A stretch of 44,293 nucleotides of DNA from a virus, in the IMG/VR virus record IMGVR_UViG_3300033153_000547, positions 1 through 44,293 of that record. One strand, 5' to 3'. Below the pieces are notes generated by a model. That model saw nothing but the letters and a program-made list of their open reading frames with translations. It was not told where the DNA came from and did not search any database. A program made the position numbers and the translations under genes. Shown one piece after another: positions 3,936 to 31,892 of the stretch. Numbering within the stretch: the first letter of the stretch is position 1; every line of letters starts with the position of its first letter.

Positions 3936-3998
3936 TTGGCGAGTAACAAAGACTTGTCTAAGGTTGGGTAGTAAAATTATTGGCAAGTGTATGATGGG
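3841..3998 (+). repeat. Exact 79-bp tandem duplication inside terL
   Basis: Bases 3841-3919 and 3920-3998 are identical over 79 bases; identity stops exactly at both outer ends (base 3840 differs from 3919, and 3920 from 3999). Seventy-nine is not a multiple of three, so the second copy shifts the frame and brings in a stop at 3933. Deleting one copy leaves a single frame. It may be an assembly error or a recent mutation. Confidence 0.95.
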
Positions 3999-13543: not shown

Positions 13544-16500
13544 ATGGCGAACTTACAAAGAAATTTTATTCAGGGGATAATGAACAAAAGTCTCGATGAG
13601 AGACTTGTGCCTAATGGGCAGTACGTTGATGCATTAAATGTACGTCTTGGCTCTACTGAGGATTCAGAGATAGGCTCAGTGGAAAATACAAAGGGAAACA
13701 CAAGGCTTACTACATTAGAGTTTAATGGAACTCCTTTAAGTTCAAACGCAAAGTGTATTGGAGCTTGTGAAGATTCTTCCCGAGAGACTATATATTGGTT
13801 TGTACATGACCGTTCATTTGGTGTGGGGGCAACAGGAAAGATTGACCTTATTGTTTCCTTAGATGTAAAGGATGATGTTCTTACATATCACGTTATATCT
13901 ATAGATGATGGAGGAGGTAATGATACCACACTGAATTTTAATCCTGATTATTTAATTACGGGTGTTAACTTTATTGGCACAAACTTATTGTACTTTACAG
14001 ATAACTACAATCAGCCAAGGTTTATTAATACTCAAACCAATTATGCTGACCCTGATACAGGAACTTTAATAGACGGGTTTGATGGGGAACAGTTGCTTGT
14101 AGTAAAAAGACCCCCTGTAACATCTCCGAATATAGAGACTAATACTATACCGGGTAACGATGACTTTATAAAAGAAAGGTTTTTGTGTTTTGCTTACAGG
14201 TATAAGTATGCAGACAATCAATACTCTGCTATATCTCAGTTCAGTAACCCTGCATTTGAACCTGATTTTTTTAATGTAACTATAGCCACGTTCCTAAACG
14301 AAGGAATGCAAAACGCAGACAACAATGTAAAGATAACAATGGACACAGGCGGTCCTTTAGTTGTTGGTTTTGATTTGTTATACAAAGAGTCTACGAACTC
14401 TGTTGTACGAGTTGTGCAGAAATTTGACAAGTCCATAGATGGTATTGCTGACAATACTACATTTACCTATGAGCTAAGTGGGTATAAAATATTTACAGTA
14501 TTACCTGATTCTGAGATTTTAAGAACGTATGACAACGTACCTTTATTAGCTAAAGCTCAGACCTTAATGGGTAATCGTCTTATATATGGGAACTATGTAG
14601 AAGGTTATGATTTAAAGGACAAGAATGGAAACAATGTAAATTTAAACTTCAACACCTCATTAGTGGCTGAAGAGATATCTACAGTGGAAATTCCTACAAC
14701 GCTTGGTAATCCGGGTTACCAAGCAGACCCTGCCAATTCCCCATATTTAGTTCTCAATGCTTTAATGCAGATGGACTTCAATGGCATTGAACTTACAGAG
14801 GGCTCTACAATATCTATAGACTTTACATTAGACCACGCAGACTTTACAAGCAACACTGCTCCCCCTTTAGGTGAGGAACAGCCGCCTGTGGATATTACTT
14901 GGGAGTATACTCTTCTTCAAGATTATCTTACTGATGGAACTTCTACAGGAGCATATAAACTTGCTACATCTCCTGACTTTTTAAATGCACTTGGTACATC
15001 TCCCCCTACAGGTACAAGTCTTCCTGTGTATGATGCAACCAATCCTACATCTTGTAATGGATTCACTCTTACGGATGTTATAAACTGTGCCATTCAGAAC
15101 ACCTTGGATGCAACAGGAGCAAACCCAAGAACAAAGTTTGAGGCGGGATATGTCGATATTCCTACAAATGGCAACCAAGGTATAGCGTATGTATTAGCAT
15201 TAAGTCCACCTGCCTTAACATCGAATGTGATAAACATACAGCTTCCTGCAATGCGAAGGGTAGACAGTGTTGTTACCCCAACAGCAAGCACCTATGAATA
15301 CTTTCAAGTAGTTAATCCACTAAATAGATTTAGTTCTGTTAAGACTCCATTGAGCTTACACAGTAATAGAAACTATGAGGTAGGTTTAATATATATGGAT
15401 GAGTACAATAGAGCCACAACCGCTTTGGTAAGTACCAATAACTCGGTTCAGGTTCCTTGTTCTAATTCAATATTTAAGAACTCTATTCAAGTAAATATAC
15501 CGCCTTCTCAACTTGCCCCTTCATTTGCTACAAGATATAAGTTCTGTATCAAGCCTGACCAAAAGGGATACGATACTGTTTATTCTAATTTCTATGTTCA
15601 AGACCCAAGCACAGGGGATACTTACATTCTATTGGAGGGTGAGAATACACGGAAGGTAGAAGAGGGTGATACTTTAAATGTAAAGAGAGATGCTGTTGGT
15701 CCGATTGGCACCTGTACTCAGGTAGTGATATTAGAAAAGAAAGCACAGACAGAAAACTTTTTAGACCCTGCACCCGAAGACGACGCAGGTGATGACATTC
15801 CTTTACCTTCGGGTACATACATCAAGGTGGCTACAAATAGCATTAGCTTAGACCTGCCTGATGACGCCTTGGTGAATCCGGGACAGAAGTATGTATTCAA
15901 TAACTTCAACGGCAATGACCAACCTCTTATGGTTTATAGTGGTCTTGGTGATTTTACGATTCCCGAAAGAGCAAGGATAGTTTTAAAGTTTAGGTTTGAA
16001 AGACTTGGTACAGGAGATGGTAACAATAACTGTGAGAGAAGAATATATGAGTACGAGCGTACCTTTTTTGCGGATGCTAACTATCCTGATATTGTAACTT
16101 GGTTTGAAGGACAAGGAATACAGGGAACATTATCAAGCGGTGAGGCAACCACAGGAGATGGTAGCTCTATTACCAATACTTATTTAGCACCTACATCGAG
16201 TACAGCTAACGATTATCAGATGCCAACCGGAGACTTTACCAACTATTATAGGTGGTATAAAAACGGAACAGACATTAGGTTTATTATGTCGGGACCGCCG
16301 AGATGTGGTAGCGGTAACAGCGAAAAGAAAAGGTCATCTATTACTTGTGAGTGGCAGGTATTCCGTTCAGAAAATCTTCTTGTATTTGAAACACAACCTC
16401 AAGATGCGGAACCTGACCTTTGGTATGAGTCTTCCGATTCCTACGCAATAGACCAAGCCACAGGATTTCATAGCGGTTCGGCTGCCATAGGAGGAGGTCA

Positions 16501-18013
16501 AGACCAAACGGCAGTAGACGATGCGATTGTTAAAACTACTTTTGGAAACTGCTACTCTTTTGGTAACGGAGTTGAAAGTTTTAAGATATTAGATTCCATC
16601 GTAGGTAAGCCAATGGAGCTTGGAGAAAGATTCTTTTCTACTTCTGCTGAAGAGTATGAAAGAGTACACAGGTTTGCAGACCTAACATACAGCGGTGTAT
16701 TTAACGACGAGACGAATGTAAATAAGCTTAATGAGTTCAACTTAGGTCTTGCTAACTTTAAGCCCTTAGAGGACTCCTTTGGGTCAATAGAACTTATTGA
16801 TGGTAGAGAGACAGATATACTTACGCTTCAGGAAGACAAAGTTTCTTATGTGCTTGCAGGAAAGAACTTGCTTAGTGACTCAACGGGCGGAGGAAGTATT
16901 GCTTCTATACCTGAGGTGTTAGGTACTCAGATTGCACGAATTGAAAAGTATGGAATAAGTAATAACCCTGAGAGTTATGTAAAGTGGGGATATAATAAAT
17001 TCTTTACCGATGCAAAAAGAGGAGCCGTAATACAGCTTAAGGGACAAGGCCAAGCAGAACAGTTAACAGTTATATCTGAAGCAGGAATGCGAGGATGGTT
17101 TAGAGACTTGTTTATTGGAAGTGGAGACACTCAAAAGCTTGGTGCATTTGACCCCTATATGAATGAGTTTGTATTAGCTTCTAACGATGTTAAGCTACCA
17201 CAAGAAGTACAAGTTCAAAACTGTGGTGTTAAAAGAACCGTTACAGTAAGTGCCGCTGACCCCCTTGTACTTACCATCAATGTAGGTAATACAGTCGGGA
17301 TATGTGATATAGATTACAATATACTATCTATTGATTCTGCACTTGGAACAGGAGGAGGTATAACTATAGCTGAAGACTATCAAGGTACATCAACATTTGT
17401 TAACACTCTTGGAACAGGTACCTTTAGCTTTAATAAAGACAGCGTAGGTGACACAGAGGTTGAGGTTACGCTCACTCCATTCTCGCCTGCAGGAAAGCAA
17501 GTTGTAGAGCTTGAAATTTCCGTTGGTTGTCCACAAGCACAAGAGATAACACTTACCACTTTTTGCGTTACTGATGCTGCTGATGCCGGAAAATTTATTC
17601 ACAATGAATATCAATGGACAGATGGTTCATTTACATCCGCACTGCAAAGCGAGCAGGTTCAATTTGCTCCGGGTAAACCTACAATATCTGCTCCCATCGT
17701 ATCATCTACAACTGTGGTTACAGCACCTCAAGGTGGCGGTATTATTCCTAACAATGGAGATGTACTATCGGTAATAAGCAATGCTATTCCGCCATCGGAT
17801 AACTACAAGTTTCAACCAAGTAACAGGTTACTGTTCTGTAGAAGTGCAACTCTTTATCCACCGACGTTTTTAGGATATAACTCTTTATTGACTGACCCCG
17901 GATTACAGGTACTTCCGCAAACGGGAGCAATACCTACAATCACAGGCACCTACACCCTGCCTGCGGGAGGAACGGAAGAGTATATGTATATTGTTTTTGA
18001 TTACTTTAGCTAA
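13544..18013 (+). CDS. Large tail hub/stabilisation-type structural protein
   Basis: 1489 residues, beta-rich, with many Thr, Asn, Gly and Asp and few helices. The N-terminus NFIQGIMNKSLDERLVPNGQYVDALNVRLG and the following SEIGSVENTKGN resemble the opening of hub proteins that bind DNA at the tail (the P22 gp10-like, beta-propeller type), where an asparagine-aspartate-rich segment starts the first blade. Further on there are Ig-like stretches near the C-terminus (about 1225-1489), for example KRTVTVSAADPLVLTINVG. It starts four bases after the adaptor gene and is followed by a smaller partner. Likely the hub of the short tail, sealing DNA in the head; the C-terminal Ig-like part may reach the cell surface. 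Alternative: a large fibre-bearing tail protein. Confidence 0.65.
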   Translation: MANLQRNFIQGIMNKSLDERLVPNGQYVDALNVRLGSTEDSEIGSVENTKGNTRLTTLEFNGTPLSSNAKCIGACEDSSRETIYWFVHDRSFGVGATGKIDLIVSLDVKDDVLTYHVISIDDGGGNDTTLNFNPDYLITGVNFIGTNLLYFTDNYNQPRFINTQTNYADPDTGTLIDGFDGEQLLVVKRPPVTSPNIETNTIPGNDDFIKERFLCFAYRYKYADNQYSAISQFSNPAFEPDFFNVTIATFLNEGMQNADNNVKITMDTGGPLVVGFDLLYKESTNSVVRVVQKFDKSIDGIADNTTFTYELSGYKIFTVLPDSEILRTYDNVPLLAKAQTLMGNRLIYGNYVEGYDLKDKNGNNVNLNFNTSLVAEEISTVEIPTTLGNPGYQADPANSPYLVLNALMQMDFNGIELTEGSTISIDFTLDHADFTSNTAPPLGEEQPPVDITWEYTLLQDYLTDGTSTGAYKLATSPDFLNALGTSPPTGTSLPVYDATNPTSCNGFTLTDVINCAIQNTLDATGANPRTKFEAGYVDIPTNGNQGIAYVLALSPPALTSNVINIQLPAMRRVDSVVTPTASTYEYFQVVNPLNRFSSVKTPLSLHSNRNYEVGLIYMDEYNRATTALVSTNNSVQVPCSNSIFKNSIQVNIPPSQLAPSFATRYKFCIKPDQKGYDTVYSNFYVQDPSTGDTYILLEGENTRKVEEGDTLNVKRDAVGPIGTCTQVVILEKKAQTENFLDPAPEDDAGDDIPLPSGTYIKVATNSISLDLPDDALVNPGQKYVFNNFNGNDQPLMVYSGLGDFTIPERARIVLKFRFERLGTGDGNNNCERRIYEYERTFFADANYPDIVTWFEGQGIQGTLSSGEATTGDGSSITNTYLAPTSSTANDYQMPTGDFTNYYRWYKNGTDIRFIMSGPPRCGSGNSEKKRSSITCEWQVFRSENLLVFETQPQDAEPDLWYESSDSYAIDQATGFHSGSAAIGGGQDQTAVDDAIVKTTFGNCYSFGNGVESFKILDSIVGKPMELGERFFSTSAEEYERVHRFADLTYSGVFNDETNVNKLNEFNLGLANFKPLEDSFGSIELIDGRETDILTLQEDKVSYVLAGKNLLSDSTGGGSIASIPEVLGTQIARIEKYGISNNPESYVKWGYNKFFTDAKRGAVIQLKGQGQAEQLTVISEAGMRGWFRDLFIGSGDTQKLGAFDPYMNEFVLASNDVKLPQEVQVQNCGVKRTVTVSAADPLVLTINVGNTVGICDIDYNILSIDSALGTGGGITIAEDYQGTSTFVNTLGTGTFSFNKDSVGDTEVEVTLTPFSPAGKQVVELEISVGCPQAQEITLTTFCVTDAADAGKFIHNEYQWTDGSFTSALQSEQVQFAPGKPTISAPIVSSTTVVTAPQGGGIIPNNGDVLSVISNAIPPSDNYKFQPSNRLLFCRSATLYPPTFLGYNSLLTDPGLQVLPQTGAIPTITGTYTLPAGGTEEYMYIVFDYFS

Positions 18014-18018
18014 AATAT

Positions 18019-18846
18019 ATGGAAGGACTAACAGGAAACTACACACTTACTTATAGCGAATCATCCAAAGGGTTCCCATCCTTTTATTCATACTACCCTG
18101 ACTATATGATTGGTATGAATAGATATTTGTATACATTCAAGGGAGGTAACTTATGGAGACACAACAGCAATGAACTAAGAAACACTTTCTACGAACAGGC
18201 AGCAGTGTCTTCGACAATGACAAGTGTCTTCAACGACACTCCATTACAAAATAAAATATTCAAGACTCTTAATCTTGAATCTGATGACGCTTGGAAAGCT
18301 ACACTAACAAGCGACATCCAAACCACAGGATTTATAGAGGCTGAGTATTTTGAAAAGAAAGAGCGTGATTGGTTTGCTTTTGTAAGAAACTCAGGAGCGA
18401 CACCTGCTGATGTAGATGAGTACGCTTTACGTTCACTCAATGGTATAGGCTCAAGCTCAAGTACAGATGTAGCTGTGCCTGCCGCTGTTGAGATATCGTT
18501 TGCACTCACTACAAACATTGGAAGTATTGTAAGTATTGGTGACAATCTATATTACATAGCATCCCCTGTAGCACCAAATGCAACTCCTGTTTTTTGTGGA
18601 AAAATAATTGACATTCAAGTAGACCTACCCGAGGGTATAAACAAAATAATAGTTAATACATCGGTAGCATCAGGTAGTTTACCTCCGGGAGCTACAGATT
18701 ATTTCTTATACATAAAGAATCAGGTGGCAGAATCACACGGAATACTTGGCCACTACTGTGAGTTTACATTAGAACTGCCAAGCACTGTAACAACTAAATC
18801 AGAGTTATTTGCAGTAGAATCTGAAGTGATGAAAAGTTTCCCTTAA
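18019..18846 (+). CDS. Tail protein, partner of the hub protein
   Basis: 275 residues, five bases after the hub gene. The first third has an aromatic-rich motif, SSKGFPSFYSYYPDYMIGMN followed by YLYTFKGGNLWRHN, which also occurs in large tail proteins of Bacteroidota phages, where it seems to close a propeller-like domain. The rest is beta-rich with SIGDNLYYI and PEGINKIIVNTS and ends with EVMKSFP. Together with its neighbour this looks like one structural unit split into two chains. I see no enzyme motif. The next gene has its own promoter, so this may be the last gene of the tail transcript. Confidence 0.65.
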   Translation: MEGLTGNYTLTYSESSKGFPSFYSYYPDYMIGMNRYLYTFKGGNLWRHNSNELRNTFYEQAAVSSTMTSVFNDTPLQNKIFKTLNLESDDAWKATLTSDIQTTGFIEAEYFEKKERDWFAFVRNSGATPADVDEYALRSLNGIGSSSSTDVAVPAAVEISFALTTNIGSIVSIGDNLYYIASPVAPNATPVFCGKIIDIQVDLPEGINKIIVNTSVASGSLPPGATDYFLYIKNQVAESHGILGHYCEFTLELPSTVTTKSELFAVESEVMKSFP

Positions 18847-18868: not shown

Positions 18869-19279
18869 ATGCCGTTAGAGATAAAGACCTTAACAGATTC
18901 TGATTACGAAAACATTTTATGCGAATGGTGGAAGGATTGGAATTGGGAGGCACCCCCTAAAAAATTTCTACCCGATAACGGAAAAGGTGGATTAATTATA
19001 TATGATGGGGATACTCCTGTTTGTGCGGGCTTTATGTATGCTACAAATTCTGCAGTAGCTTGGGTGGATTGGATAATATCAAACAAGAACTACAGAAAAA
19101 AACCAAATAGAAGTGAGGCTTTGAGATTGTTAGTAGAGTCACTGACAAGTATATGTAAAAGCACGGGGCACGAATATGTATATGCACTAATAAAGCATAG
19201 TTCTTTATTGCAAACATATAGAGACGTGGGTTATGTGGATGGTGATACTTATAACAAAGAAATGATAAAAACATTTTAA
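18869..19279 (+). CDS. GNAT-like acetyltransferase
   Basis: 136 residues. The central part, PVCAGFMYATNSAVAWVDWIISNKNYRKKPNRSEALRLLVE, follows the GNAT plan: strand 4 (AWVDWIISN), the acetyl-CoA pyrophosphate loop region with Arg/Lys and a small turn, then helix 3. A later strand (HEYVYALI) and the C-terminal QTYRDVGYVDGDTYNKEM fit strands 5-6. The canonical Q/RxxGxG/A loop is degenerate (KKPNRSEA), so activity is uncertain. GNAT enzymes move an acetyl group to an amine. It lies between tail and ejection genes, with its own promoter box close to the start. Target unknown; it could modify host proteins early or a virion protein. Confidence 0.6.
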   Translation: MPLEIKTLTDSDYENILCEWWKDWNWEAPPKKFLPDNGKGGLIIYDGDTPVCAGFMYATNSAVAWVDWIISNKNYRKKPNRSEALRLLVESLTSICKSTGHEYVYALIKHSSLLQTYRDVGYVDGDTYNKEMIKTF

Positions 19280-19280
19280 T

Positions 19281-20135
19281 ATGGCAATAGCAACGACAAC
19301 AGCATTAGCAATCGGAGGATTAGCTTTATCCGCAGGTACAACTGCGGCATCGTTTGGTCAAGCAAACAAGCAGAAAAAAATTCAACAACAAGCAGAAAAA
19401 GATGCCGAGAAATCTATGGAGAAAGCTCGTAAGGCACTTGGTGTAAATTACTTTGAGGACCTTGCGGTACAAAAAGAAAAGTTTGAATTAGAAAGAGATG
19501 CTACACTACAAGCTCAGGCAGGTGCTACTCAGGCATTACAGGAGGGCGGAGCTCGAGCTGTTGCAGGAGGAGTTGGTAGAGTAGGCTTAGCGGGTCAGCA
19601 ACAACAGGCGGCTACAAGAACTGCGATGGGTAAAGAGCTTAGCGAACTACAAAGATTAACTGCTCAAGAAGACACAAGACTTAGAGACTTGGGTGTTCAG
19701 TTAGACTTGGAAGAAGCAGCGGGAGCACAGCTTGCGGCTCAGAATGCTCAAGAGATTAGAGCTCAAAAAATTGGAGAAGGAATCCAAGGGGCAATGAGTG
19801 TCGCTCAACAGGGACTTTCTATGGTTCCATTATACCAACAAAATATCGGGGCTCAGAAAGCAGCTATAAATCAACTTACGCAAGCGGAGCAGGGTATGAA
19901 TGTGCTAAGAAATGCTTCGCCTCAAAACTATGCAGGACAAATAGGCGGTCAAGCCCTTGGAGATATTGCAACGCAGCAGCAGTTTCAAGGCGTAGCGAAT
20001 ATGAGTAATAGAGATTTTCGACAATTTAAAAAAGGTCTTACGCCTCAGCAAGGACAAGCTATATTTGGTAATCAAACATTTCTTGATGCGTATAGTAATG
20101 CTGATACTTCGTACTTGAACCCTTTTCAACTATAA
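19281..20135 (+). CDS. Internal virion/ejection protein 1 (T7 gp14-like position)
   Basis: 284 residues starting one base after the GNAT stop. The N-terminus is hydrophobic (ATTTALAIGGLALSAGTTAAS) and could span a membrane. Then come long Ala/Gln/Glu-rich helices with few aromatic residues (ARKALGVNYFEDLAVQKEKFELER, then LQRLTAQEDTRLRDLGVQLD-like repeats). A small protein with one hydrophobic segment, followed by a medium and a giant protein, matches the order gp14-gp15-gp16 of T7 (ejected to build a channel). Sizes here are 284, 643 and 3271 residues. Function is inferred from this order and composition. Confidence 0.65.
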   Translation: MAIATTTALAIGGLALSAGTTAASFGQANKQKKIQQQAEKDAEKSMEKARKALGVNYFEDLAVQKEKFELERDATLQAQAGATQALQEGGARAVAGGVGRVGLAGQQQQAATRTAMGKELSELQRLTAQEDTRLRDLGVQLDLEEAAGAQLAAQNAQEIRAQKIGEGIQGAMSVAQQGLSMVPLYQQNIGAQKAAINQLTQAEQGMNVLRNASPQNYAGQIGGQALGDIATQQQFQGVANMSNRDFRQFKKGLTPQQGQAIFGNQTFLDAYSNADTSYLNPFQL

Positions 20136-20141
20136 TAAACT

Positions 20142-22073
20142 ATGGCTACTTACTATAAATATGCAGAGCGAAGTGCGGACTCCACAATAAATTGGGCTGA
20201 GGTCGGTCAGAATATGACTGATATGCTTCAGGAAGAAGCAAGAGTTAGAGAAGCTAAAAAGGCAGCTATTGATGAGGAGACTCGAAAACTTGGAGAGAAT
20301 CTATCTAATGCCCCTATGGGTGAGTTTGAGCCTGCCAATCAGTTCGCTTTAAACTTTGCCGGTGATGCACAAGAAACAAGATTAATTCAGGACAGGTTAT
20401 TACGCTCAGGTATGTTAAGGCCAAAGGACTACGCTATTATGCGTCAGAATCTAAACGATGGAACTAAGACAATGTTTGATTTGTCCAAGGCATATCAAGA
20501 AGAGGCGGCGAGAAAAAGAGAAAGGATGAATGCTGTAGAACCCGCCAAAAGAAGCCAACTATTAGAGTCGTGGTTTATGGAGCAGGTAGAAGGTTTGGGA
20601 AATTTATCTCAAGCTAAAGCTGTGATAAACCAAACTAACGGGCAGGTAAGTATAGGTAAAATGATTAAAGGTAAAGATGGTGTCATGACCCTCGACCCTA
20701 ATTATAATTACACCGTCAATGAATTGAACACTCGAATCAAGCAGGACTTTAATTACTTTGACGTTGACAGAGCAATGCTTGAAGAAGAGGCAATGATTGG
20801 AGAGGCCAAATCTATGATACTTAATTCAGCAGACTCTAAGGGAGAGCTCAATATGATTTACAGTATTGTGGATAAAAAACAAGGCGAGTATTTAACAGAC
20901 TCCGAGGAGGCAGCTTTACAGGCTGCAGTTGACAATGCTACTACAGAAACAGAGAGAGCGGCAGCTTATAAAAGACAGCAGGAAGCTCTTGCAGCCAACT
21001 CTTATTTAGCAGCGGAAGATGCCATTATTAAAAAGCAGATGGTTAATCAGTTTAATACCACGTCTATACTTACCAATGATATTGGTGGGTATACTTATGA
21101 GTTTGATGAGAAGAAAGCTTTTGATGAAAATGGAAACAGAAGACAAGACGTAATCTTAATTAAAAAGAATCCATCGGGTGCTATTGAGGTAGAGTTTACT
21201 GACGAGCAAAAGCAAAAGGCAGAAGACTTTATGAGGTTAAATCTTAGAAGCAAGATATCAACATCTGAAGAAGCTAAGAGTGCAGGACTTAAACCTTACA
21301 GTCCTTATGATACTGCAGCAGCAAGTAAGCTTGCTAAGGAGGATGCTGCATCAGGTAACCTTCTATCTTGGAATGAGATATACAGAACGAATGACCCTGC
21401 AGTAGTTAAGAGTCAGTTTGAATCATTGACCAATTCAACAGGAGTAGAGTTCACAGGATTTGAATCATTAACAGTGGATGAGAATGGACAGCTCACAGGT
21501 GAAATACAAGCCATTAAAGGTGATGTTAAAGAAACGATTACCTTCCCTCCTGTAAATCAATTAGAATGGTCAGAGCAAGGTAAATTTATTCACGGTGTTC
21601 AAGACAGAAGTGTTCAAGAAAGAATACTCAAGAAAAATAAATACGACCTTGACTTCACAAGAGATACTTGGGATACTAATTTAACGGATGGTTGGAAAAC
21701 TTCTGAGACAGAGATAGAATCTCTTAAGGAAGACAAGCCTCAAATAGTTGCTGACCAATGGGAGAGTGATTTGGATACTCTACGTTCAGGACAGGGAGAT
21801 GCTAAAATGGCAGAAAGATTGTTAGGTGATGCAGGGTACCTTGTAACTCAAAAAACAAAAACTGATGACGAGGGTAGAGAGTCTGTGGTTACTGTAATTG
21901 TCTCGGCTAAAAATCCTGATAAGGTATTAGAGCAACAGGCCGGAGGAACTATTAGTGTAGAGAAGATGGTTGATGTTCTTAATACTGTAGACCCTAAAAC
22001 AAACACAGGAGTTCAGAGTGCTTACAAAAAGAAAGGAAAGAAAGAGTTACCAAAAGCAGAAAAAAAGCAATAA
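20142..22073 (+). CDS. Internal virion/ejection protein 2
   Basis: 643 residues, mostly helical and highly charged, with no hydrophobic segment. The start has SADSTINWAEVGQNMTDMLQEEARVREAKKAAIDEE and the C-terminal end is very Lys-rich (YKKKGKKELPKAEKKQ). It sits between the small hydrophobic and the giant ejection proteins and corresponds in order to gp15 of T7. It may form the periplasmic tube through which DNA travels. I find no catalytic motif. The gene follows its neighbours at six- and three-base gaps. Confidence 0.6.
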   Translation: MATYYKYAERSADSTINWAEVGQNMTDMLQEEARVREAKKAAIDEETRKLGENLSNAPMGEFEPANQFALNFAGDAQETRLIQDRLLRSGMLRPKDYAIMRQNLNDGTKTMFDLSKAYQEEAARKRERMNAVEPAKRSQLLESWFMEQVEGLGNLSQAKAVINQTNGQVSIGKMIKGKDGVMTLDPNYNYTVNELNTRIKQDFNYFDVDRAMLEEEAMIGEAKSMILNSADSKGELNMIYSIVDKKQGEYLTDSEEAALQAAVDNATTETERAAAYKRQQEALAANSYLAAEDAIIKKQMVNQFNTTSILTNDIGGYTYEFDEKKAFDENGNRRQDVILIKKNPSGAIEVEFTDEQKQKAEDFMRLNLRSKISTSEEAKSAGLKPYSPYDTAAASKLAKEDAASGNLLSWNEIYRTNDPAVVKSQFESLTNSTGVEFTGFESLTVDENGQLTGEIQAIKGDVKETITFPPVNQLEWSEQGKFIHGVQDRSVQERILKKNKYDLDFTRDTWDTNLTDGWKTSETEIESLKEDKPQIVADQWESDLDTLRSGQGDAKMAERLLGDAGYLVTQKTKTDDEGRESVVTVIVSAKNPDKVLEQQAGGTISVEKMVDVLNTVDPKTNTGVQSAYKKKGKKELPKAEKKQ

Positions 22074-22076
22074 GAA

Positions 22077-25000
22077 ATGGATGAAGATTTATTAGCTCTA
22101 TACGAAGATATAAAGGACGAGTATAATGTAGGTTCATTTGATGAGTTTAAAACTTACATATCAGACGACGGAAATGCCCAAGCCTTTTATGAGGGTGTAG
22201 TTGAGCCCAATTACAATGTGTCCTCCTTTGATGAATTCAAAGCTACATATATTAGCCCATCGAGTCCGATGAGTGAAAAAAAAAACTTCGATTCGGAATC
22301 TGTATCGGAAGTTGGTTCTTTGGAGCCGCAAGAATCCGTTGAGACAGACTTCCTTGATTACACGCAGGCTGTCAATGCTCCAATGATGCAAGACAGGGAG
22401 CCAATATCAACTGCAGATGCTCCTCAAACTATAGAAGAATTACAAGAAAAGATTCAGGACCCCGGTGCATTCAATCGTCAACCTGAAATGTATTACATTG
22501 GTAGTGAGCAGGTAGACGTTAACCATCCTGACAAAGCAACACGAGTTGCAAATCAAAAGCGAGTATTGAATATGCCTATCCCCTCTGTAGAGGCATTAAC
22601 CACACGAGGTATGGGAATTAGTGAAGCGGTAAGTCAACACTCCGAAGCCGTAAACAAAAGAGCTGAGTTGGCGGCGAGGTATAAAAGAGAAAGATTAGAG
22701 GAGTCCGGAATCAAAGAACAACCCACGTTTCAAGAAGTATTAGATGGTGCTCGACCTACTGTAGAATTACCTGACAACTTTTATGACATTGCCTCCACCC
22801 CTTTAGAGGAAAGAAGTGAAGATGATTTGTTTGCTGCGGAAATTATTTATAATGAAAGAGCAAAAGCAAACAACAGAAAGCAAAAAAAAGAAGCAGGCTT
22901 TATTGAAGTAAACGGAGAGCTTATGGACCCTGAAGCACTCGACGAAGGGTTTGGTTTTGATGCAGCCTTAAACACTCTTACATTTTCAGGCGATAAAGGT
23001 TCCCTATCTAAAGATGGAGTTACTTTGCGTAACGAGTCTGATATGAGAAGTTTATTAGAGAACAAGTTTAAGCAGTATGGTTTTACTGTTAGTGAAGATG
23101 TAATCGGTCAAGACTTTATTGTTATTACAGGACCTGATGGTAGTGAAAAAAGATTTAGTCTTGGGGGAGCAGGAAATGCAAAGTTACAGGCAAGTGCAAT
23201 TAAAAGATTCATAAACAATTCCTATGCCAATGCAGGCTTTACTTTAGAGGAACAGGCTGAGCAAGCGGGTAGGATGGTATCTGATACCGACTTGGTAGGT
23301 ATAGATGACTTGAGTCCTGAAAAGATAATGAATGGAAGGTCTAAGTATGTAACGGCAGAAACGGAAAAACTTTTTCAAGACAGAGAAAAATTAGAGAAGG
23401 TCGGCACTATGCTAACTGCCAAAAGTCAAGACATAAAAAATACAGAGAAAGATATAAACGATTTACTATATTACAATGACAAGTTTCAAAGCCGAGACGG
23501 CAGCATATCTTTTAGAAATTCAGAAGTTCAAAAGGAATACGATAGGCTTACCGAGCTTTATTTAAAACAGGGAAAAGATATAAGGAACTTGGCAGATGCG
23601 GGCGGTTCATTGGAAAATGACTTCAACAAAAAGGCTAAAGACTTAGAGTATTACGCAGGAGAAAGAGCATTGATGCTTGCAAATGCGTGGGACATAGAAG
23701 ACATACCTGCTTTTACAGCGGGTGAGTTTATGCGAGGGGCAGGTAGTGTGGTATCAGGATACACAAGATTAGGACATGACCTGTATTCAAACATCAATAA
23801 TCTTTTTTACAATGAAGGTGATGAGGAATACATCACAGACAAGGAGAGAAAACAGTTTAAGCAGGGCTTAGCAATGACAAGCGAGATGCGAGGCATGAGT
23901 GATATGGATACAGAAACTCAGCAGGCCATACGAGAATCAGGAGGTATAATTACTGAAGGTTTATTTGGACTTGCAGGCTCATTACCTGCGATGTTTACCG
24001 GGCCTGCATCTATTCCTTCTTTTGCTGCAATGTCTATAGATGCGGTGTCTTCTGAAATGGAAAAGATTCCTGAGTTTGCAAACATATCTGAAAATGAAAA
24101 GCTACTACTAACTGTTCCTATTGGTGTAACTGTAGGGGTATTAGAAAACTATGGTTTTAGAAGTGCCCTCAACAACTCTTCTTTAGTTTCTCGTATTACT
24201 ATAAATGCACTTAAGAAATTTGGAGCTCAGAACCTTGCTAAGGCAGGGACCAAAAAAACTTTTCAAGAGATTGTGGAAAGGTCTGCGTTAGGTTCAATAA
24301 AGAAAGCGGGTATACTTACCCTGTCGTCTGCTGCTTCAGAGTTTGAAACAGGGGCTGCTCAGGAATTAGCTGAGGTATATGCAAAGGAGATATATGACGT
24401 GGCTAAAGGCAATAACTTTTTTGACCAAGCAGTAGATTTTCAAAAGGGTGAAATGTGGAATTGGAATCTTACCAAACAAGTATTAAGAGCCGGTGCAGCA
24501 GAAGCTGTTGGTGGTTTTGTTATGGGTATGCCTAATGCTATATCTCGAGCAACAGTTGGAGAGAAACTACCACAGGTTTCTGATATGGGGTTTGACTTAT
24601 TTAGATTGTTAAACAACAGTGAGAATGTAGATAAGACCATAGCGGCACAAAAGGCAAATTGGTATGCTAAAGTAGGTGTAAAAGAGAATCCTGAAACAGG
24701 AGAGGTATATACCAAGAAAGAAGTTGATGATATGTTTAATCTCTACGAAGACGTGATAGGTCAGAGTAAACAAATCAAGGAGGAGTATGGTGCTGAGTAT
24801 CAAAAGAAAATTCTTCAGAAACTTATTCAGAAAAAACAATTAGAGGAGGAGATTGAGGAGTATGCTAAACCTACCACTAAAGAACAGCAGAGACAGGTAG
24901 CTGTAATCAATGAAGATATTGAAGCGTTAACTGAGTTAGCCGAGAAGCAACTTGTAAAAGACGAGGCAAGATATGAGAAGGCTAAGAAGAAAGGTTTTAA

Positions 25001-28000
25001 GGGTGACTTTAAATCGTTTATGACGGGCACCAATCTTGCTGAAGAGATAGCAAGTGGTGTACAAAAAGAAGATGCAGTAGAACAGGCTGAAGACGAGGCT
25101 GTACCTGAGCCTATCGAAAACGTAACCAACGCACAGTTTGTTCAATACCAAAAAGACCTTGAGAAAGGAGAGTTAGATGAGGGAATCAGGGATGGTATAC
25201 TGTCTCGAGTCATAGATAAAGAGCAGGACAATCTTAAACTAACACCTTTACAGCAGCAGATTAAGGAGCAGAACGAATCAAGATACAATGAGATATCAAC
25301 TCTTAAGGAGGCTCAGAAACAAAGAGATGAGGTTGCACAAAAAGAAGCACAGCTTGAGGAACTAAAAGTAAAAGAAGCAGAAGAACAAAAGCAAAAAGAA
25401 TCAGAAGCACAACAGCAAGCTATTGCTACAGAGTTTGAGGAGCAGAGTGAAGAGCAGCAAGTAAAAATGTTGGAGGAAGCTGAGGCTGAACTAATAGAAG
25501 AGAAGGGCCCCGGAAAAAGACGTATGCTTATTGGTAAAAGAGTTGCTCCTGTAGTAACAGAGGAAGAGGTTAGAGCAAGAGCTTTAGAAAATCTTGTAGC
25601 ACAGAAAGAAGTGGCCAAGCAAAAAGCAGAAGAGGTGGCTAAGATTGAGGAGGAAGGTGAAGCAATGGTTGAGCTTGCGGCTCCTATTACAAGAGTAACC
25701 AAGCAGATGAAGCAACAGTTCGAAGATGGAACTATTGCAGAGGAAACTGTAGATGGTATCATATCAAACATCCTACAAAAAGAAGAGCAGGGTAAAAAGC
25801 TTACACCGTTTCAGCAACAACTAAAAGATAAGAACAAAGCCCGATACAATCAGTTGGTATCTGCAGGTACAGTGAGAGCTGAGGCATCAGAACTTGAAGG
25901 GTTGATTCAAGAGGATGAGCAAGCCCCTGATTTTAGAAGAGAAACAACAGACGAAACAGTAGAGGTAGACTCCGAAGGCTACAGAGTTGGATTTGAGAAG
26001 TCTAAAAAAGGTAAACTTTTTGGATACAAAGTTATGACTGTTAACGATAAAGGAGAGTTAGAGTCAGGAGCGGATAGTAGACAAAGACTTGTTAATAAGA
26101 AAGGCGAAGTTCATACGATGCCCGGAGCAGGAATATTCATATCCAATGACCCGAACTATGTAAAGGATTATTACTCTGCAAGAGAAACATCTGAAGACCC
26201 TAAAGAGGTGTTAATAAAATACGAGTTTGATGAAGCGGATATCGAGTCAGGAAAGCTACAGCTAAACGAATCACAACCTGAGATATCCATATCAAAAGGT
26301 AAGGTGGTACAGGTTTTTGAATTAGAGCTTTCTCCTCAAGACCAAGTAGAAAAGATAGTAGAAGAGATAAACTCTAAAGAGTCTCCTAACGTAGAGTTAG
26401 ATATCAGCTCTAATGAGATGACTGCTGAGGGTACTAAGATTGACAAGAAAGGTTTACTGAGTAGACTTAAAAATAAAATACCATTCATTAAGAACTTGGA
26501 CATCATTAAGAATATCCCTGTAGTATTCAACATATCTGACCAACTTACCACGGGTAATGCAGTGAATCCACAAACAGGAAACACAATAGATAAGTTGATG
26601 GGTGGTCTTGGGTTTACAGGTTCACCCGGAAACAGTGGCCTTGCTTGGGCAAGTGTAAGTAAGACAAAGGGGAATGAATTTGTAAATAAAGCTCGTAAAG
26701 CTTATGAGCAGAATAAAGAGGTATTAGAAAAGTTTTGGGCAGCGAACCCTCAGTTTGCAGGACTTGTTCCAATGGTAGTAGTTAAGATGGGTGAGAAGTC
26801 TATGGTTTCTAATGAGGCTGTAATGAGAGTGTTCTTAGATAATCTTACTCAGATTCCTAAAGCAAATCAAAAAAAGGCTTTAGGTATGTTGGTGGAAGAA
26901 CTTGAATCAGTGTTTCCTAAGTTAAAGAAAAACGAGAAGCCCGGAGTTAGAGATTTCATTGAGGCTTTTAAAAAGAAAAAACCAAAGACTTTTAATGAGG
27001 TTCTAAACATAGACTTCTTAAGAGAAAATAATATATCCCTTGCAGCCCGAACTGTACTTATGGACAGGCTCACAGTGGGTTCGGCAAACGAAGCAGGAAA
27101 GAAAAAGGTTCAGCCGGGGAAACCGGGAACTCCAATTACAAAAGCTTTGACGGAAGGCTTGGTGGGTGCAGAAGCAAGTGAGCTTCTTGCTCTTAGTCTA
27201 ATAACAGACACCGTCACTGAGAAGGCTATGGAGAATGTGCCTGCTAACTCTATCATTGCTGTTCAGGGTGTAGAGGTGGCCAAGAAAGATAGCAAGGGTA
27301 ATTGGGTAGAGTCCGGTGGTACAGGCGAGACAACACACCCCAACTACCCCGGAGGTATAAAAGGAAAGACCATAGGTATACTTGAGAATCCTGTGTCGTT
27401 AGCTGATGCTTTTCCTGTAGCCTATCAGCGTGCATTAGAAAGAATCATTGATGCAGATACAACTGTCACAGCTAAAGGTGAACCAAAAGCAAAAACAAAG
27501 AAGTCAATTAAGGATGTACTGTCTAAGGCTTTCTTCCTTTCAGCAGGTATTCCAATGAATAGTTTTATTGGTGCCATATCACGGGGTAAGGTAGACAACA
27601 TAGCTAAGCTTACATCATTCCTGAATGCGGCATTCCCTAATGTACAAATCAGTACAGACCAAGCAACTTTTGATGAGGTCATAAGCTCGGATAAAGTGAA
27701 GCAGTACATACGCAAGGGAGATGTAATATATGGTGTCACTGTGGATGGAGATATATACATAAACCCTCAGGTTCACAACAGCGACTCTGCTTTGTTCAAT
27801 ACTGCTATTCACGAGATGGGCCACGTTTGGCAAAGCTATCTGCTCACTACACCTGAAGGTAAGAAGATATACGATAAAGGGGTAGAGCTTGTTACTGAGA
27901 CTGAAGAGTATCAGAAGCAATTAAAAGTATTCAATGGCAACAAGGAAAGAGCTGCCAAAGAAGCTATGGCTATACTGATTGGTAACAAGGGTGAGACTAT

Positions 28001-31000
28001 AGCGAACGCATCTATAAAAAGTAAATTCAAGGAATGGCTTCTTGGTATGTGGACTTACATCAAAGACAAGTTCAAGATGTCAAAGGACCTTACTGCAAAA
28101 GAAGTTCAGGACCTTACGCTTGATGAGTTCTTAGGAACAGCTTTAGCAGATGTAATGAGTGGTAAACCAATTAAACTGAGCAAGGTACAGCAGAGAGAGA
28201 TGAAAAATCCTGAGGTGCTTTTCAGTAAGGTTGAAGACCCATCACGAATTGTTTCTCGAGGAAGAGAGAATGGATTCTCTGACGCATCTATCAGACAGGT
28301 ACTTAGAGGTAGAGGTTTCTCTGCTGAGGTAATCAACGAAGCTATGACTGTTCAGGTAGACTTAGTCACTACCTTGCCAAGAGCATTTGAAAAGGTAGAG
28401 GGTGGACCTAATCAGGGTAATGAACTTTTCTCTCAAGTAAAAGAAAGACTAAGACAGTTTGCTGTTGCCGGTCCAAGAGGTGGTGTCAAGGGAGATAGGA
28501 AGCGTACAAAAACATACGGTGAAATCAGGCAGAAGGCTCAAGACTTAATGAAGGAGAATGAAATCTTTAAGGCTCAAGCAGAACAGGTACAGCAGGAGTT
28601 ATTGTTGGCTATGGACAGAACCCTTCAGACAAATGCTAATGCAACTGTAGAGGCTCAGATGGCTGCCATAAGAAAGACCTTGAGGGAGCGACGAACTGCA
28701 GAGAAAAATCTAAGAGAGCTTCAGGAAAGTTTACGCAAAGATATTGCTGAAGCACTTCCAAAGAATGACAGATACTCTAAGAGAACTATAAGCAAGATGA
28801 ATGCACTGATTGCTGCGGTAACTGTAGACAATTATCAATCTCAGTTAGAGGAAGTAATCAAGGAGGTATACAAGCAGAAGACCAAGATAGAAAATGCAGA
28901 GATAAAGCGTATCGAAAAACAGATACGAGATACTATCCGAGACAAAAAGATTGGTGTTCGTGAGGGACAAAAAGATTTAAGGAACCTACAAGTAAGATTG
29001 AAAAATTATATTCGATTAGCATTACCACCAAGCAACAAGTATACCCGTGGTGCTGTTACTCGTATGAACGCATTGATTTCAAACCTGAAGGCATCCAACT
29101 ATCAGGATACTATAGAAAAGGTTGAGAAAGAAGTAGAGAGACAGCGAGCTAAAATGAAACGAGACCTCATCAAAGACCTCGTAAAAGAAGTTCGAAAGAA
29201 TGCTCGTAAGAACAGAACTCGTTCAGGTAAAATCAGAGCGAGAGGAAAGGATGCAAGAGGTCAGCTTTACTTTGAGGAACTAAATCCTATACTCAATGCT
29301 ATTGTAAAGGGAGACATTAATACTTTGTTGGACATTATGAATGACCTTGCTGAAAAGAACAGTGAGATAAACCAAGCCTTAGCAAAGGAGCAGAAGGGAG
29401 AGAAGCTAACAACCAATGAAGAGAGGCTGCTTACCCGTGTTCAAGCGTTCGATACGTTTGGGAAAGTACCGGAGATGGAGCTCGAAGAACTACAGCAGTT
29501 ATACGATACAGTATTGGAGATGAAGTCTGAGTCTATTGCAAACCTCAAATCTATACAGGCAGAGAGAAGACAAGTGAGAGCTTCTTTGGAAGACAGAGTT
29601 ACTGAGCAGATTAAAGAAACTAATCCTGAGTTGTTCGATGAAGATGGAGAGTTGTTAGATGAGAATGAACTTGCGGCAAAGAAGGATGAAGTACAGTCTG
29701 AGTTTCAAAAGAAAGGAATCAGGGAAGGATTAAACAAATGGTATACCTCTTCATTTAAGTTTGGGAACATAAAGGAAATGCTTAGAAGTGCGAGAGACTC
29801 AATGCTTCACTTGGGTGCCTTAACAAATATAGCAGATAGGGTTACGGAAGGTAAGTCTGTATTCACGGAAAACATATACCGCAATCTAAATCGTATGGAC
29901 GAGAATAGAAACAGAGGTGTATATAATACTAACAGAAAACTAAACCTGTTGGCCAAGTCTGTTGGTATAATAGATGGTATCAAAGGAGTAAAAAGAAAAC
30001 TTCTTACAGGTAATGCAGGAGGTCTTCACGAGTTTGTAGTAATAAGTAGTAAGAAAGGAACGAAGACTAAAACCGATTTTACTTCTGACCAACTAATGAG
30101 AATCTATGCCCTGTCTTTAAACGAAGTTCAAAGGGCAAAGTTAGAGCGTCAGGGTATTGGACCTGCTGAAATAAAAAGAATCAAAGAAGAAATACTTGGG
30201 CCTGACTTAGTTCAGTTTACTGATAAGGTTGTTGAGTTCTTAAGTGGGGAATACTATGAGCAAGTAAACCAAGTATACTCCGAACAGAATAATATAAACT
30301 TGGGATACATTGAAAACTACTTCCCAACTAAGACCACTCGAAGCAAGGTAGATGCTAAGATGATTGAGGACGGAGACTTCAGTTCAATATTCACGGCAGA
30401 GACTGCTCCTGCTTTTAAGGAGAGAATAGACAAGACCTCTGACATCAATCTAAAAGAGGCAGACTTTATGGGTACTCTTGACAATCACGTCGAGACAATG
30501 GAGAAGTATATGTCCTATGCTCAAGGTCTAAGACAGCTTACAGATTTCTTTAAGATTCCTGCAGTAGATGTGTTATTGGATGAGCTGAATATAAAGCGAA
30601 TGACTAAGTTCTTAATAAACCAAACTGTAAATCCTAACGCAGGAATGAGCCCTGAGAATAAATTAATCAGTGATATAGGTAGCAAGTTTACAGGCTTCGC
30701 ATTATCATTTAAGGCTATACAAATACTTAAGCAGGCTACATCTTTTGTAAACGCATTCGAAGAGTACAGCTACAGGGGTAAAGGGAAAAAGAAAATCCCC
30801 GGCGTGGACGCTATTATGTTTATGGTAGACTTTGGAAAGATGCTTTCGACACTACCGATGGACCTCTTTGGTAAGGGACCTATCAATGAAGCGATGGAAA
30901 TGTCTGCTACATTTAGGAAAAGGGTAGAGCAAGGAATAGAAGGAGATGTATATGGATTGGAGTCGGGTTCTAAAACATTTAAAAGAGCAGACAAGAACTC

Positions 31001-31892
31001 ATCTAAATGGAAGAAAACAAAAGCGGGATTCAAGACCGGTGCTGCATTCCCTACAGTTCTCGGAGACATAATGGGAGTTATGGGTTACATGATTAACTAC
31101 AAACGAAACATTAAGAACGGAATGACAAAGGCAGAAGCGGTAGAGGCTTTCAATGATTACAATGCTACTCAGCAATCAAGGAGAGGTACTGATAAAAACA
31201 AACTTCAGTTTTCCAACAGTGCATTAACGAGAAGCTTTACAATGTTTGGAAGTGTGCTGTTCTTACAGATGAACAAGGTTCAGATGGCAGCATTAAACAT
31301 AGGGCGAGACACAATGAAGTCGGGCAAGTTGGCACTAAAAGGTAAGGTAAAAGAGGCTGCCAAAGCAGCACCTAAATCTAAAGACCTCAGAGCTTTTTAT
31401 TTGAACCTTGCTGTTGCTAACGTACTGTTTGTTATTACTGCCAACATATCCAAGATGATTAATGGTGATGACGATGATAGGGATGAGGTGATGGATAAAG
31501 TAGTTGAAGCAATGTTTGGTTTGAATCAGCTGTATAAGATTCCTTTCCTTGGTCCTGCATTCAGTAGGCACGTTATGGGTAACAGGTATACACCTGATGT
31601 GGTAAACCCATTAGAGCAAGTGATAAGAAAAGTTAAGAAAAAAGCTGATGCAGATGAGAATCCTGTCGTACCAATCATAGAGTTAATAATAGGAGCTCAG
31701 GTTGACCCTGTTATAGGTTTGTATAATGCAGGCTTCGGAGCTGAAGAAGACTTCGAAGATAATATGCAGGACGCCTTAGGTATCTCTAAGTCTTACAGAC
31801 CCGGTAGTGGGAGCTCAGGTAAGAAAAAGAGTAAGGGCTTTGACAGCTTTGACAAGTTCGATAAATTTGACAAGTTCGATAAATTTGATTAG
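22077..31892 (+). CDS. Giant 3271-aa multidomain virion (polyvalent-type) protein
   Basis: 3271 residues, nearly a quarter of the window. Domains I can see in order: two short N-terminal repeats (YNVGSFDEFKTYIS and YNVSSFDEFKATYIS); hydrophobic stretches at about 624-655, 676-694 and 803-822; long charged coiled regions with a duplicated unit (about 1016-1074 and 1203-1260); an ADP-ribosyltransferase-like region at about 1300-1420 (LFGYKVMTVNDKGE, then GIFISNDPNYVKDYYSA); a zincin metallopeptidase motif HEMGH at 1912-1916; a second duplicated unit (about 2213-2270 and 2301-2356); a long helical C-terminal part with a hydrophobic segment near 3107-3128; and a tail of FDK repeats. Such mixtures are known as polyvalent proteins of phages and plasmids, and as T7 gp16-like ejected proteins. 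I saw no RNA polymerase motifs. ART-like assignment is tentative. Confidence 0.75.
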   Translation: MDEDLLALYEDIKDEYNVGSFDEFKTYISDDGNAQAFYEGVVEPNYNVSSFDEFKATYISPSSPMSEKKNFDSESVSEVGSLEPQESVETDFLDYTQAVNAPMMQDREPISTADAPQTIEELQEKIQDPGAFNRQPEMYYIGSEQVDVNHPDKATRVANQKRVLNMPIPSVEALTTRGMGISEAVSQHSEAVNKRAELAARYKRERLEESGIKEQPTFQEVLDGARPTVELPDNFYDIASTPLEERSEDDLFAAEIIYNERAKANNRKQKKEAGFIEVNGELMDPEALDEGFGFDAALNTLTFSGDKGSLSKDGVTLRNESDMRSLLENKFKQYGFTVSEDVIGQDFIVITGPDGSEKRFSLGGAGNAKLQASAIKRFINNSYANAGFTLEEQAEQAGRMVSDTDLVGIDDLSPEKIMNGRSKYVTAETEKLFQDREKLEKVGTMLTAKSQDIKNTEKDINDLLYYNDKFQSRDGSISFRNSEVQKEYDRLTELYLKQGKDIRNLADAGGSLENDFNKKAKDLEYYAGERALMLANAWDIEDIPAFTAGEFMRGAGSVVSGYTRLGHDLYSNINNLFYNEGDEEYITDKERKQFKQGLAMTSEMRGMSDMDTETQQAIRESGGIITEGLFGLAGSLPAMFTGPASIPSFAAMSIDAVSSEMEKIPEFANISENEKLLLTVPIGVTVGVLENYGFRSALNNSSLVSRITINALKKFGAQNLAKAGTKKTFQEIVERSALGSIKKAGILTLSSAASEFETGAAQELAEVYAKEIYDVAKGNNFFDQAVDFQKGEMWNWNLTKQVLRAGAAEAVGGFVMGMPNAISRATVGEKLPQVSDMGFDLFRLLNNSENVDKTIAAQKANWYAKVGVKENPETGEVYTKKEVDDMFNLYEDVIGQSKQIKEEYGAEYQKKILQKLIQKKQLEEEIEEYAKPTTKEQQRQVAVINEDIEALTELAEKQLVKDEARYEKAKKKGFKGDFKSFMTGTNLAEEIASGVQKEDAVEQAEDEAVPEPIENVTNAQFVQYQKDLEKGELDEGIRDGILSRVIDKEQDNLKLTPLQQQIKEQNESRYNEISTLKEAQKQRDEVAQKEAQLEELKVKEAEEQKQKESEAQQQAIATEFEEQSEEQQVKMLEEAEAELIEEKGPGKRRMLIGKRVAPVVTEEEVRARALENLVAQKEVAKQKAEEVAKIEEEGEAMVELAAPITRVTKQMKQQFEDGTIAEETVDGIISNILQKEEQGKKLTPFQQQLKDKNKARYNQLVSAGTVRAEASELEGLIQEDEQAPDFRRETTDETVEVDSEGYRVGFEKSKKGKLFGYKVMTVNDKGELESGADSRQRLVNKKGEVHTMPGAGIFISNDPNYVKDYYSARETSEDPKEVLIKYEFDEADIESGKLQLNESQPEISISKGKVVQVFELELSPQDQVEKIVEEINSKESPNVELDISSNEMTAEGTKIDKKGLLSRLKNKIPFIKNLDIIKNIPVVFNISDQLTTGNAVNPQTGNTIDKLMGGLGFTGSPGNSGLAWASVSKTKGNEFVNKARKAYEQNKEVLEKFWAANPQFAGLVPMVVVKMGEKSMVSNEAVMRVFLDNLTQIPKANQKKALGMLVEELESVFPKLKKNEKPGVRDFIEAFKKKKPKTFNEVLNIDFLRENNISLAARTVLMDRLTVGSANEAGKKKVQPGKPGTPITKALTEGLVGAEASELLALSLITDTVTEKAMENVPANSIIAVQGVEVAKKDSKGNWVESGGTGETTHPNYPGGIKGKTIGILENPVSLADAFPVAYQRALERIIDADTTVTAKGEPKAKTKKSIKDVLSKAFFLSAGIPMNSFIGAISRGKVDNIAKLTSFLNAAFPNVQISTDQATFDEVISSDKVKQYIRKGDVIYGVTVDGDIYINPQVHNSDSALFNTAIHEMGHVWQSYLLTTPEGKKIYDKGVELVTETEEYQKQLKVFNGNKERAAKEAMAILIGNKGETIANASIKSKFKEWLLGMWTYIKDKFKMSKDLTAKEVQDLTLDEFLGTALADVMSGKPIKLSKVQQREMKNPEVLFSKVEDPSRIVSRGRENGFSDASIRQVLRGRGFSAEVINEAMTVQVDLVTTLPRAFEKVEGGPNQGNELFSQVKERLRQFAVAGPRGGVKGDRKRTKTYGEIRQKAQDLMKENEIFKAQAEQVQQELLLAMDRTLQTNANATVEAQMAAIRKTLRERRTAEKNLRELQESLRKDIAEALPKNDRYSKRTISKMNALIAAVTVDNYQSQLEEVIKEVYKQKTKIENAEIKRIEKQIRDTIRDKKIGVREGQKDLRNLQVRLKNYIRLALPPSNKYTRGAVTRMNALISNLKASNYQDTIEKVEKEVERQRAKMKRDLIKDLVKEVRKNARKNRTRSGKIRARGKDARGQLYFEELNPILNAIVKGDINTLLDIMNDLAEKNSEINQALAKEQKGEKLTTNEERLLTRVQAFDTFGKVPEMELEELQQLYDTVLEMKSESIANLKSIQAERRQVRASLEDRVTEQIKETNPELFDEDGELLDENELAAKKDEVQSEFQKKGIREGLNKWYTSSFKFGNIKEMLRSARDSMLHLGALTNIADRVTEGKSVFTENIYRNLNRMDENRNRGVYNTNRKLNLLAKSVGIIDGIKGVKRKLLTGNAGGLHEFVVISSKKGTKTKTDFTSDQLMRIYALSLNEVQRAKLERQGIGPAEIKRIKEEILGPDLVQFTDKVVEFLSGEYYEQVNQVYSEQNNINLGYIENYFPTKTTRSKVDAKMIEDGDFSSIFTAETAPAFKERIDKTSDINLKEADFMGTLDNHVETMEKYMSYAQGLRQLTDFFKIPAVDVLLDELNIKRMTKFLINQTVNPNAGMSPENKLISDIGSKFTGFALSFKAIQILKQATSFVNAFEEYSYRGKGKKKIPGVDAIMFMVDFGKMLSTLPMDLFGKGPINEAMEMSATFRKRVEQGIEGDVYGLESGSKTFKRADKNSSKWKKTKAGFKTGAAFPTVLGDIMGVMGYMINYKRNIKNGMTKAEAVEAFNDYNATQQSRRGTDKNKLQFSNSALTRSFTMFGSVLFLQMNKVQMAALNIGRDTMKSGKLALKGKVKEAAKAAPKSKDLRAFYLNLAVANVLFVITANISKMINGDDDDRDEVMDKVVEAMFGLNQLYKIPFLGPAFSRHVMGNRYTPDVVNPLEQVIRKVKKKADADENPVVPIIELIIGAQVDPVIGLYNAGFGAEEDFEDNMQDALGISKSYRPGSGSSGKKKSKGFDSFDKFDKFDKFDKFD

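What the first reader, a model, noticed from the sequence alone, without database searches (positions are those of the whole stretch)
22077..31892. Giant 3271-aa virion protein with zincin and ART-like regions
One chain combines hydrophobic segments, coiled regions, two pairs of internal duplications, an HEMGH metalloprotease motif (1912-1916), and a region resembling ADP-ribosyltransferase-type effectors (about 1300-1420). It is the last of three ejection-type genes, so it may enter the cell with the DNA and act on host proteins at once. The combination resembles polyvalent proteins, but the domain order seems not one I know.
Basis: partly seen in the sequence, partly recalled or inferred. 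Interest (0 to 1): 0.8.

Follow-up and report, generated by a model that had tools for sequence, protein, structure and literature searches.

The report
Phage-injected giant protein with swappable cargo
This marine phage encodes a 3271-residue protein, probably packed in the virus particle and shot into the bacterium, that carries a conserved zinc-protease-type domain next to a slot whose enzyme-like cargo differs even between near-identical relatives; the protein type is known, and this family and its cargo slot appear to be new.

Summary
The ORF (22077-31892, 3271 aa) is real. It is the last of three genes after a portal, capsid and crassvirus-type muzzle block. Synteny and weak similarity link that cassette to Cellulophaga phage phi18:3, whose counterparts were found in virions by mass spectrometry.

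HEMGH is real and functional-looking. H1912, E1913, H1916 and a downstream E1962 are invariant in the relatives that carry the domain and lie on confidently modelled helices. The family misses Pfam's MPTase-PolyVal model.

The 1300-1420 region is a genuine mobile module. Six further distinct homologues (36-44% identity) occur stand-alone, or fused to NUDIX, nucleotidyltransferase or GNAT domains. The ADP-ribosyltransferase (ART) fold stays unproven: no Pfam, PDB or profile match, and only a suggestive strand/helix order.

New point: relatives 90-100% identical along most of the chain carry unrelated sequence in the slot holding this module (about 1050-1450). Cargo types recur across contigs in different combinations, while the zincin and C-terminal third stay conserved.

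Best reading: an ejected polyvalent protein with a hot-swapped internal payload, possibly released by the adjacent zincin (cleavage and release are inferred). The concept is known (PMC5512222). This is a new variant.

The parts
22077..31892 (+). Giant 3271-aa virion-cargo (polyvalent-type) protein
   Evidence: relatives L001-L018
22080..22256 (+). N-terminal duplicated ~30-aa motif (aa 2-60), like phi18:3 gp122 / phrog_24532, which is a separate gene there
   Evidence: phrog_24532 E 4e-06; phmmer to gp122 E 8e-10; duplication score 67 vs shuffle max 39
25113..25307 (+). Copy 1 of 60-aa repeat (aa 1013-1077)
   Evidence: not found in the relatives
25686..25868 (+). Copy 2 of 60-aa repeat (aa 1204-1264)
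25224..26441 (+). Variable payload slot (aa ~1050-1455); unrelated sequence in close relatives
   Evidence: Pairwise mosaic identity and payload comparison; boundaries approximate
26013..26351 (+). GYKVM/GI[YF]xS/E module (aa 1313-1425), ART-like by layout only; invariant residues include Y1317, K1318, S1356, Y1361, YYS1365-1367, E1402
   Evidence: A7/A12 alignments, homologues L024, L025, L026, L031, L035-L037
26424..27566 (+). Accessory middle domain (aa 1450-1830), present in most but not all relatives
   Evidence: no PDB match
27594..28046 (+). Zincin-type domain (aa 1840-1990)
   Evidence: A2: invariant H, E, GH, W and downstream E; helices at pLDDT about 85-91
27810..27824 (+). HEMGH motif (aa 1912-1916)
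27960..27962 (+). Invariant Glu1962, candidate third zinc ligand on a downstream helix
28701..29207 (+). Tandem duplication of an ~80-aa helical unit (aa 2209-2288 and 2298-2377); relatives have about one copy
   Evidence: Score 154 vs shuffle max 53; occupancy of 2201-2300 low in relatives
29034..31826 (+). Conserved helical C-terminal region (aa 2320-3250), family core
   Evidence: A6; AlphaFold mostly helical but low confidence, pLDDT 54
20142..22073 (+). Second cassette gene (643 aa), phrog_35506-like
   Evidence: phrog_35506 E 3.7e-23; MW202828 homologue E 1.7e-45
19281..20135 (+). First cassette gene (284 aa), related to phi18:3 gp120 (seen in virions by MS/MS)
   Evidence: phrog_13764 virion structural protein E 9.7e-11; gp120 E 4.6e-07
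13544..18013 (+). Crassvirus-type muzzle protein
   Evidence: PF25731 crAss_MUZ E 3.8e-13; phrog_14478 E 7.9e-213
18019..18846 (+). Muzzle C-terminal part as a separate gene
   Evidence: PF25729 crAss_MUZ_C E 3.7e-16; phi18:3 gp115 E 1.4e-28

Best explanation
It is a virion-packaged polyvalent protein of a Bacteroidota-type short-tailed phage with a crassvirus-like muzzle. The conserved N-terminal and C-terminal parts probably serve packaging and ejection together with the two smaller cassette proteins (inferred from synteny). The middle is a payload slot that evolves by exchange of whole modules (shown by comparison). In this phage the slot holds a small module of an undescribed family with an ART-like layout. 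The conserved zincin downstream most likely cuts the chain during assembly or after entry, releasing payload (inferred, as proposed in general for polyvalent proteins); acting on host proteins instead is possible. The payload would act on host macromolecules or defence as the first DNA enters (inferred).
For: Synteny muzzle - muzzle C - 136-aa gene - cassette A - cassette B - giant in window and MW202828 and, with variations, phi18:3 and elemo; phi18:3 gp120, gp121 and gp123 annotated from MS/MS. Gundel_1 homologue (31% in the zincin) annotated structural. Zincin catalytic residues invariant in the relatives aligned, including divergent zincin versions in L012 and Gundel_1. Payload exchange: L004 vs L011 mostly 90-100% identical except about 1100-1670; L012 vs L013, L008 vs L002 and L005 vs L016 similar in kind; two payload types recur over many contigs and a 184-aa module is 92-93% identical between different contexts. 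Polyvalent concept with MPTase and ART in PMC5512222; virion ARTs and Nudix in PMC9503650; cargo ejection in crassvirus in PMC10172136.
Against: No virion data for this phage. phi18:3 gp123 is not detectably homologous by phmmer or by the A6 profile and has no zincin, so the virion link rests on position, the smaller genes and Gundel_1. No cleavage site is known. Structure models are of low overall confidence (pLDDT 54-57) and no PDB fold match reached E 0.001.
Confidence: 0.62

Rival explanations
1. The zincin is itself the effector: it cleaves a host protein after injection, and the swapped slot has another role such as host-specific adaptation of ejection.
For: The zincin is among the most conserved parts of the mid-chain and is kept whatever the payload. 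PMC5512222 lists this as an alternative. L012 carries a divergent zincin within an otherwise close backbone (30-38% to the others), which could fit an exchanged effector.
Against: Constancy of the zincin beside hypervariable neighbours fits a processing role at least as well; no host substrate is suggested by anything seen here.
Confidence: 0.2
2. The 1313-1425 module is an active mono-ADP-ribosyltransferase acting at once on host proteins. (This concerns the nature of the payload and can hold together with the best explanation.)
For: Predicted order strand (GIFI) - helix (PNYVKDYY) - strand (VLIKYEFD) - strand (EISI) - strand (VVQVFELE), with invariant E1402, resembles ART C-lobes (from general knowledge of PARP-like ARTs). 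A homologue is fused to NUDIX (PF00293 E 4e-16). A rifampin ART appears in the fold list, but at E 0.99, prob 0.15.
Against: No match to ART-PolyVal or PARP models, Pfam or PDB sequences; hhalign with KptA prob 0.2-0.3%, though its profiles are very thin. The strand-1 His of H-Y-E/D ARTs is not seen (GYKVM instead).
Confidence: 0.35
3. The giant protein is a structural or ejection scaffold only; the enzyme-like modules are decayed.
For: Large helical, low-complexity stretches; the GYKVM module is absent from the aligned relatives at this position.
Against: Invariant H, E, H and E in divergent zincins and invariant residues across seven GYKVM modules in unrelated contexts indicate selection for function.
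Confidence: 0.12

Closest known systems
Polyvalent proteins (Iyer et al. 2017, PMC5512222), e.g. N4-type vRNAP with MPTase, Roseovarius podovirus 1 vRNAP with ART
   Same: Very large phage protein, virion-associated context, zincin plus other enzyme-like modules, modular exchange
   Different: No match to Pfam MPTase-PolyVal or ART-PolyVal models; no RNA polymerase domain recognised; an internal slot swapped between near-identical backbones, flanked by conserved parts
Crassvirus cargo proteins (PhiCrAss001 gp45-gp50, PMC10172136)
   Same: Same genome neighbourhood type (crassvirus muzzle family), proteins stored in the virion and ejected
   Different: No family match to them found; PhiCrAss001 large cargos are RNAP-associated, here zincin plus payload. 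A direct sequence comparison was not run
Cellulophaga phage phi18:3 gp122/gp123 (Pachyviridae)
   Same: Last genes of the same cassette; gp122 matches the N-terminus of the giant; gp123 is an MS/MS-detected structural protein
   Different: gp123 is 1935 aa, not detectably homologous and has no zincin
Tenacibaculum phage Gundel_1 gp74
   Same: 2482-aa structural protein with a homologous zincin
   Different: 31% identity over the zincin only; different gene order
Polymorphic toxins
   Same: Conserved delivery part with exchangeable effector module
   Different: Payload is internal, not C-terminal; delivery by phage ejection (inferred); no immunity gene was sought

Membership tests
Polyvalent proteins | Multiple distinct domains in one polypeptide of a phage or conjugative element | tested here: met
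   Zincin, GYKVM module, middle domain and helical C-terminus
Polyvalent proteins | Delivered into the host with the DNA | not testable with these tools
   Only synteny with virion proteins of phi18:3
Polyvalent proteins | Match to the curated MPTase-PolyVal model PF18818 (common but not obligatory in the class) | tested here: not met
   No match at E 10 in window or 7 relatives
Zincin metallopeptidase | HExxH plus downstream third ligand (Glu) on a following helix | tested here: met
   H1912, E1913, H1916, E1962 invariant; helices in the model
Zincin metallopeptidase | Zincin fold matched to a solved structure | tested here: inconclusive
   No PDB fold match at E 0.001; M61 peptidase at E 0.72. 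SprT-like viral model only at E 0.22, prob 0.89
ADP-ribosyltransferase (ART) superfamily | Sequence match to a known ART family | tested here: not met
   KptA profile comparison
ADP-ribosyltransferase (ART) superfamily | Split-sheet ART fold | tested here: inconclusive
   Beta-rich model at moderate confidence with a compatible element order; no significant fold match
ADP-ribosyltransferase (ART) superfamily | Catalytic triad (H-Y-[ED] or R-S-E) | tested here: inconclusive
   Invariant E1402 and S1356; no conserved strand-1 His, YK instead
Phages with crassvirus-type tail | Muzzle protein homologue in the genome | tested here: met
   PF25731 and PF25729 above their cut-offs; membership in the order Crassvirales was not tested

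The most novel reading that the evidence does not exclude
The giant protein is an injected, polymorphic-toxin-like delivery system in which a conserved zincin releases whichever effector sits in an internal, recombining slot, and the GYKVM module is the founding member of an undescribed NAD-using effector family.
Probability: 0.22. Interest if true: 0.8.

Novelty: new variant of a known kind. Interest (0 to 1): 0.52.

Why it matters
If the giant protein is ejected, near-identical phages deliver different first-strike proteins from one protein scaffold. The slot would then be a natural catalogue of phage weapons or counter-defences against marine Bacteroidota, readable by sequence alone, and would make the long-suggested role of polyvalent zincins (self-processing or attack) directly testable. 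The GYKVM module, shared by a virion-type giant protein, a NUDIX fusion and stand-alone genes of 300-kb viral contigs, is not in Pfam at the sensitivity used.

Tried and rejected
Searching the module with single-sequence patterns found no relative in viral contigs, genome contigs or phages. DNA patterns built on GI[YF]xS....YV.DYY then found them; some pattern hits were chance (L023, L027, L033, L034). A first combined alignment put the module rows at the wrong place and was replaced by A5 after testing row sets. PDB fold search of the 803-aa model gave no significant match; its PPAR-gamma list is taken as chance. hhalign with KptA was uninformative because the profiles are thin. Searches of relatives by taxonomy are not possible for a virus record. 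The idea that the 60-aa repeats flank payloads in all relatives was rejected: they occur only in the window. Chimaeric assembly as the cause of the payload mosaic is thought unlikely, because payload types recur in contigs of different samples, but reads were not checked. Weak Pfam hits (RecX_HTH2, INO80E, T4SS_pilin) and AiiA in NCBIfam are below cut-off and disregarded.

Full report
Observation. The window is an IMG/VR virus record of 44,293 bases. ORF 22077-31892 is open and encodes 3271 aa. HEMGH lies at 1912-1916; with 12 His in the chain 0.004 such motifs are expected. Three internal duplications are well above shuffles. Two hydrophobic segments near the C-terminus pass a usual threshold.

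Surroundings. The late block reads P22-type portal (5229), capsid (8882, by match to structural proteins of phi18:3 and elemo), two further structural-type genes, a crassvirus muzzle (13544; PF25731 and phrog_14478), the muzzle C-terminal part as its own gene (18019; PF25729), a 136-aa gene, two small cassette genes and the giant. The same order from the muzzle on is in the uncultured phage MW202828 and, with insertions, in Cellulophaga phi18:3 and Flavobacterium elemo phages. In phi18:3 the counterparts gp120, gp121 and gp123 are annotated from MS/MS. The first cassette gene matches gp120 (E 5e-7), and the giant's first 60 residues match gp122, a separate small gene there. gp123 itself does not match. 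Tenacibaculum phage Gundel_1 carries a 2482-aa structural protein with a homologous zincin. So presence in virions is likely but inferred.

Zincin. Seventeen viral contigs encode relatives. In the alignments H1912, E1913, G1915, H1916 and E1962 are invariant, including in MW202828 and Gundel_1. In the AlphaFold model the HEMGH helix and the helix with E1962 are among the best-predicted parts. No solved structure matches significantly, and Pfam's MPTase-PolyVal model does not reach it. I take it as a divergent zincin; catalytic activity is not shown.

The supposed ART. The aligned relatives do not have this region, and it has no Pfam, PDB, phage or plasmid match. A DNA pattern scan found homologues: stand-alone genes of 121-131 aa (one of them in two related contigs of over 300 kb), the start of a nucleotidyltransferase protein, the end of a NUDIX protein and the middle of a 668-aa protein with a GNAT domain. 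Seven distinct sequences share GYK.M, GI..S....Y...YYS and a late invariant Glu (window E1402). The model shows strand-helix-strand-strand-strand, compatible with an ART C-lobe, and NUDIX fusion fits ADP-ribose chemistry. But profile comparison with KptA is negative, Pfam ART-PolyVal and PARP are negative, and the usual strand-1 His is missing. I give ART about one in three.

Payload slot. The strongest new result is the mosaic. L004 and L011 are mostly 90-100% identical over about 1-1050 and from about 1670 to the end, yet unrelated in most of the stretch between; L012/L013, L008/L002 and L005/L016 behave alike with lower flanking identity in some pairs. Two payload types recur, one in L002, L003, L007-L011, L013 and L016, the other in L004, L005, L006, L012, L015 and L017. 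A 184-aa module is 92-93% identical between L010 and L012/L015, which otherwise carry different types. L012 even has a different zincin version in a close backbone. One member of the family has weak GNAT-type Pfam hits. The window's GYKVM module sits in this slot, just before the middle domain; the window's own backbone is more divergent, so its slot limits are set by analogy.

Mechanism. Shown: the gene, conservation of the zincin residues, module exchange. Inferred: packaging and ejection, cleavage by the zincin, action of the payload in the host. Iyer et al. (PMC5512222) proposed self-processing, or attack on host proteins, for such zincins; PMC9503650 collects evidence for virion-packaged ARTs and Nudix proteins; PMC10172136 gives the crassvirus cargo model.

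Verdict. Known in concept, new in detail: a family of polyvalent-type proteins with a hot-swapped internal slot and an undescribed payload module.

Noticed in passing
window 3841-3998: Perfect 79-base tandem duplication that splits the presumed large terminase gene (2868-3935 and 3964-5232) by a frame shift; possibly an assembly artefact.
   Followed up: partly
L004 7883-8686, L005 9074-9880, L012 7979-8929, L015 7838-8755: Payload type with a long invariant motif around FRFVHDFFGH and MYSP.ARRAMTTETRGQNS; no PDB match.
   Followed up: partly
L002 7946-8884, L008 7967-8884, L010 7919-8851, L013 7934-8827, L016 9083-10033: Second recurrent payload type (about 310 aa, 55-90% identity to L002), no function assigned.
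   Followed up: partly
L031 2623-3303: NUDIX domain fused to the GYKVM module in a 75-kb viral contig.
   Followed up: partly
L035 5675-7678, minus strand: 668-aa protein with GNAT, the GYKVM module and a region that looks ParB-like by eye.
   Followed up: partly
window 31820-31892: The giant protein ends in a short FDKFD repeat, unlike the tails of its relatives.
   Followed up: no
window 18869-19279: 136-aa gene conserved at the same place in MW202828, phi18:3 and elemo (annotated acetyltransferase complex subunit in MW202828), between muzzle and ejection cassette.
   Followed up: no
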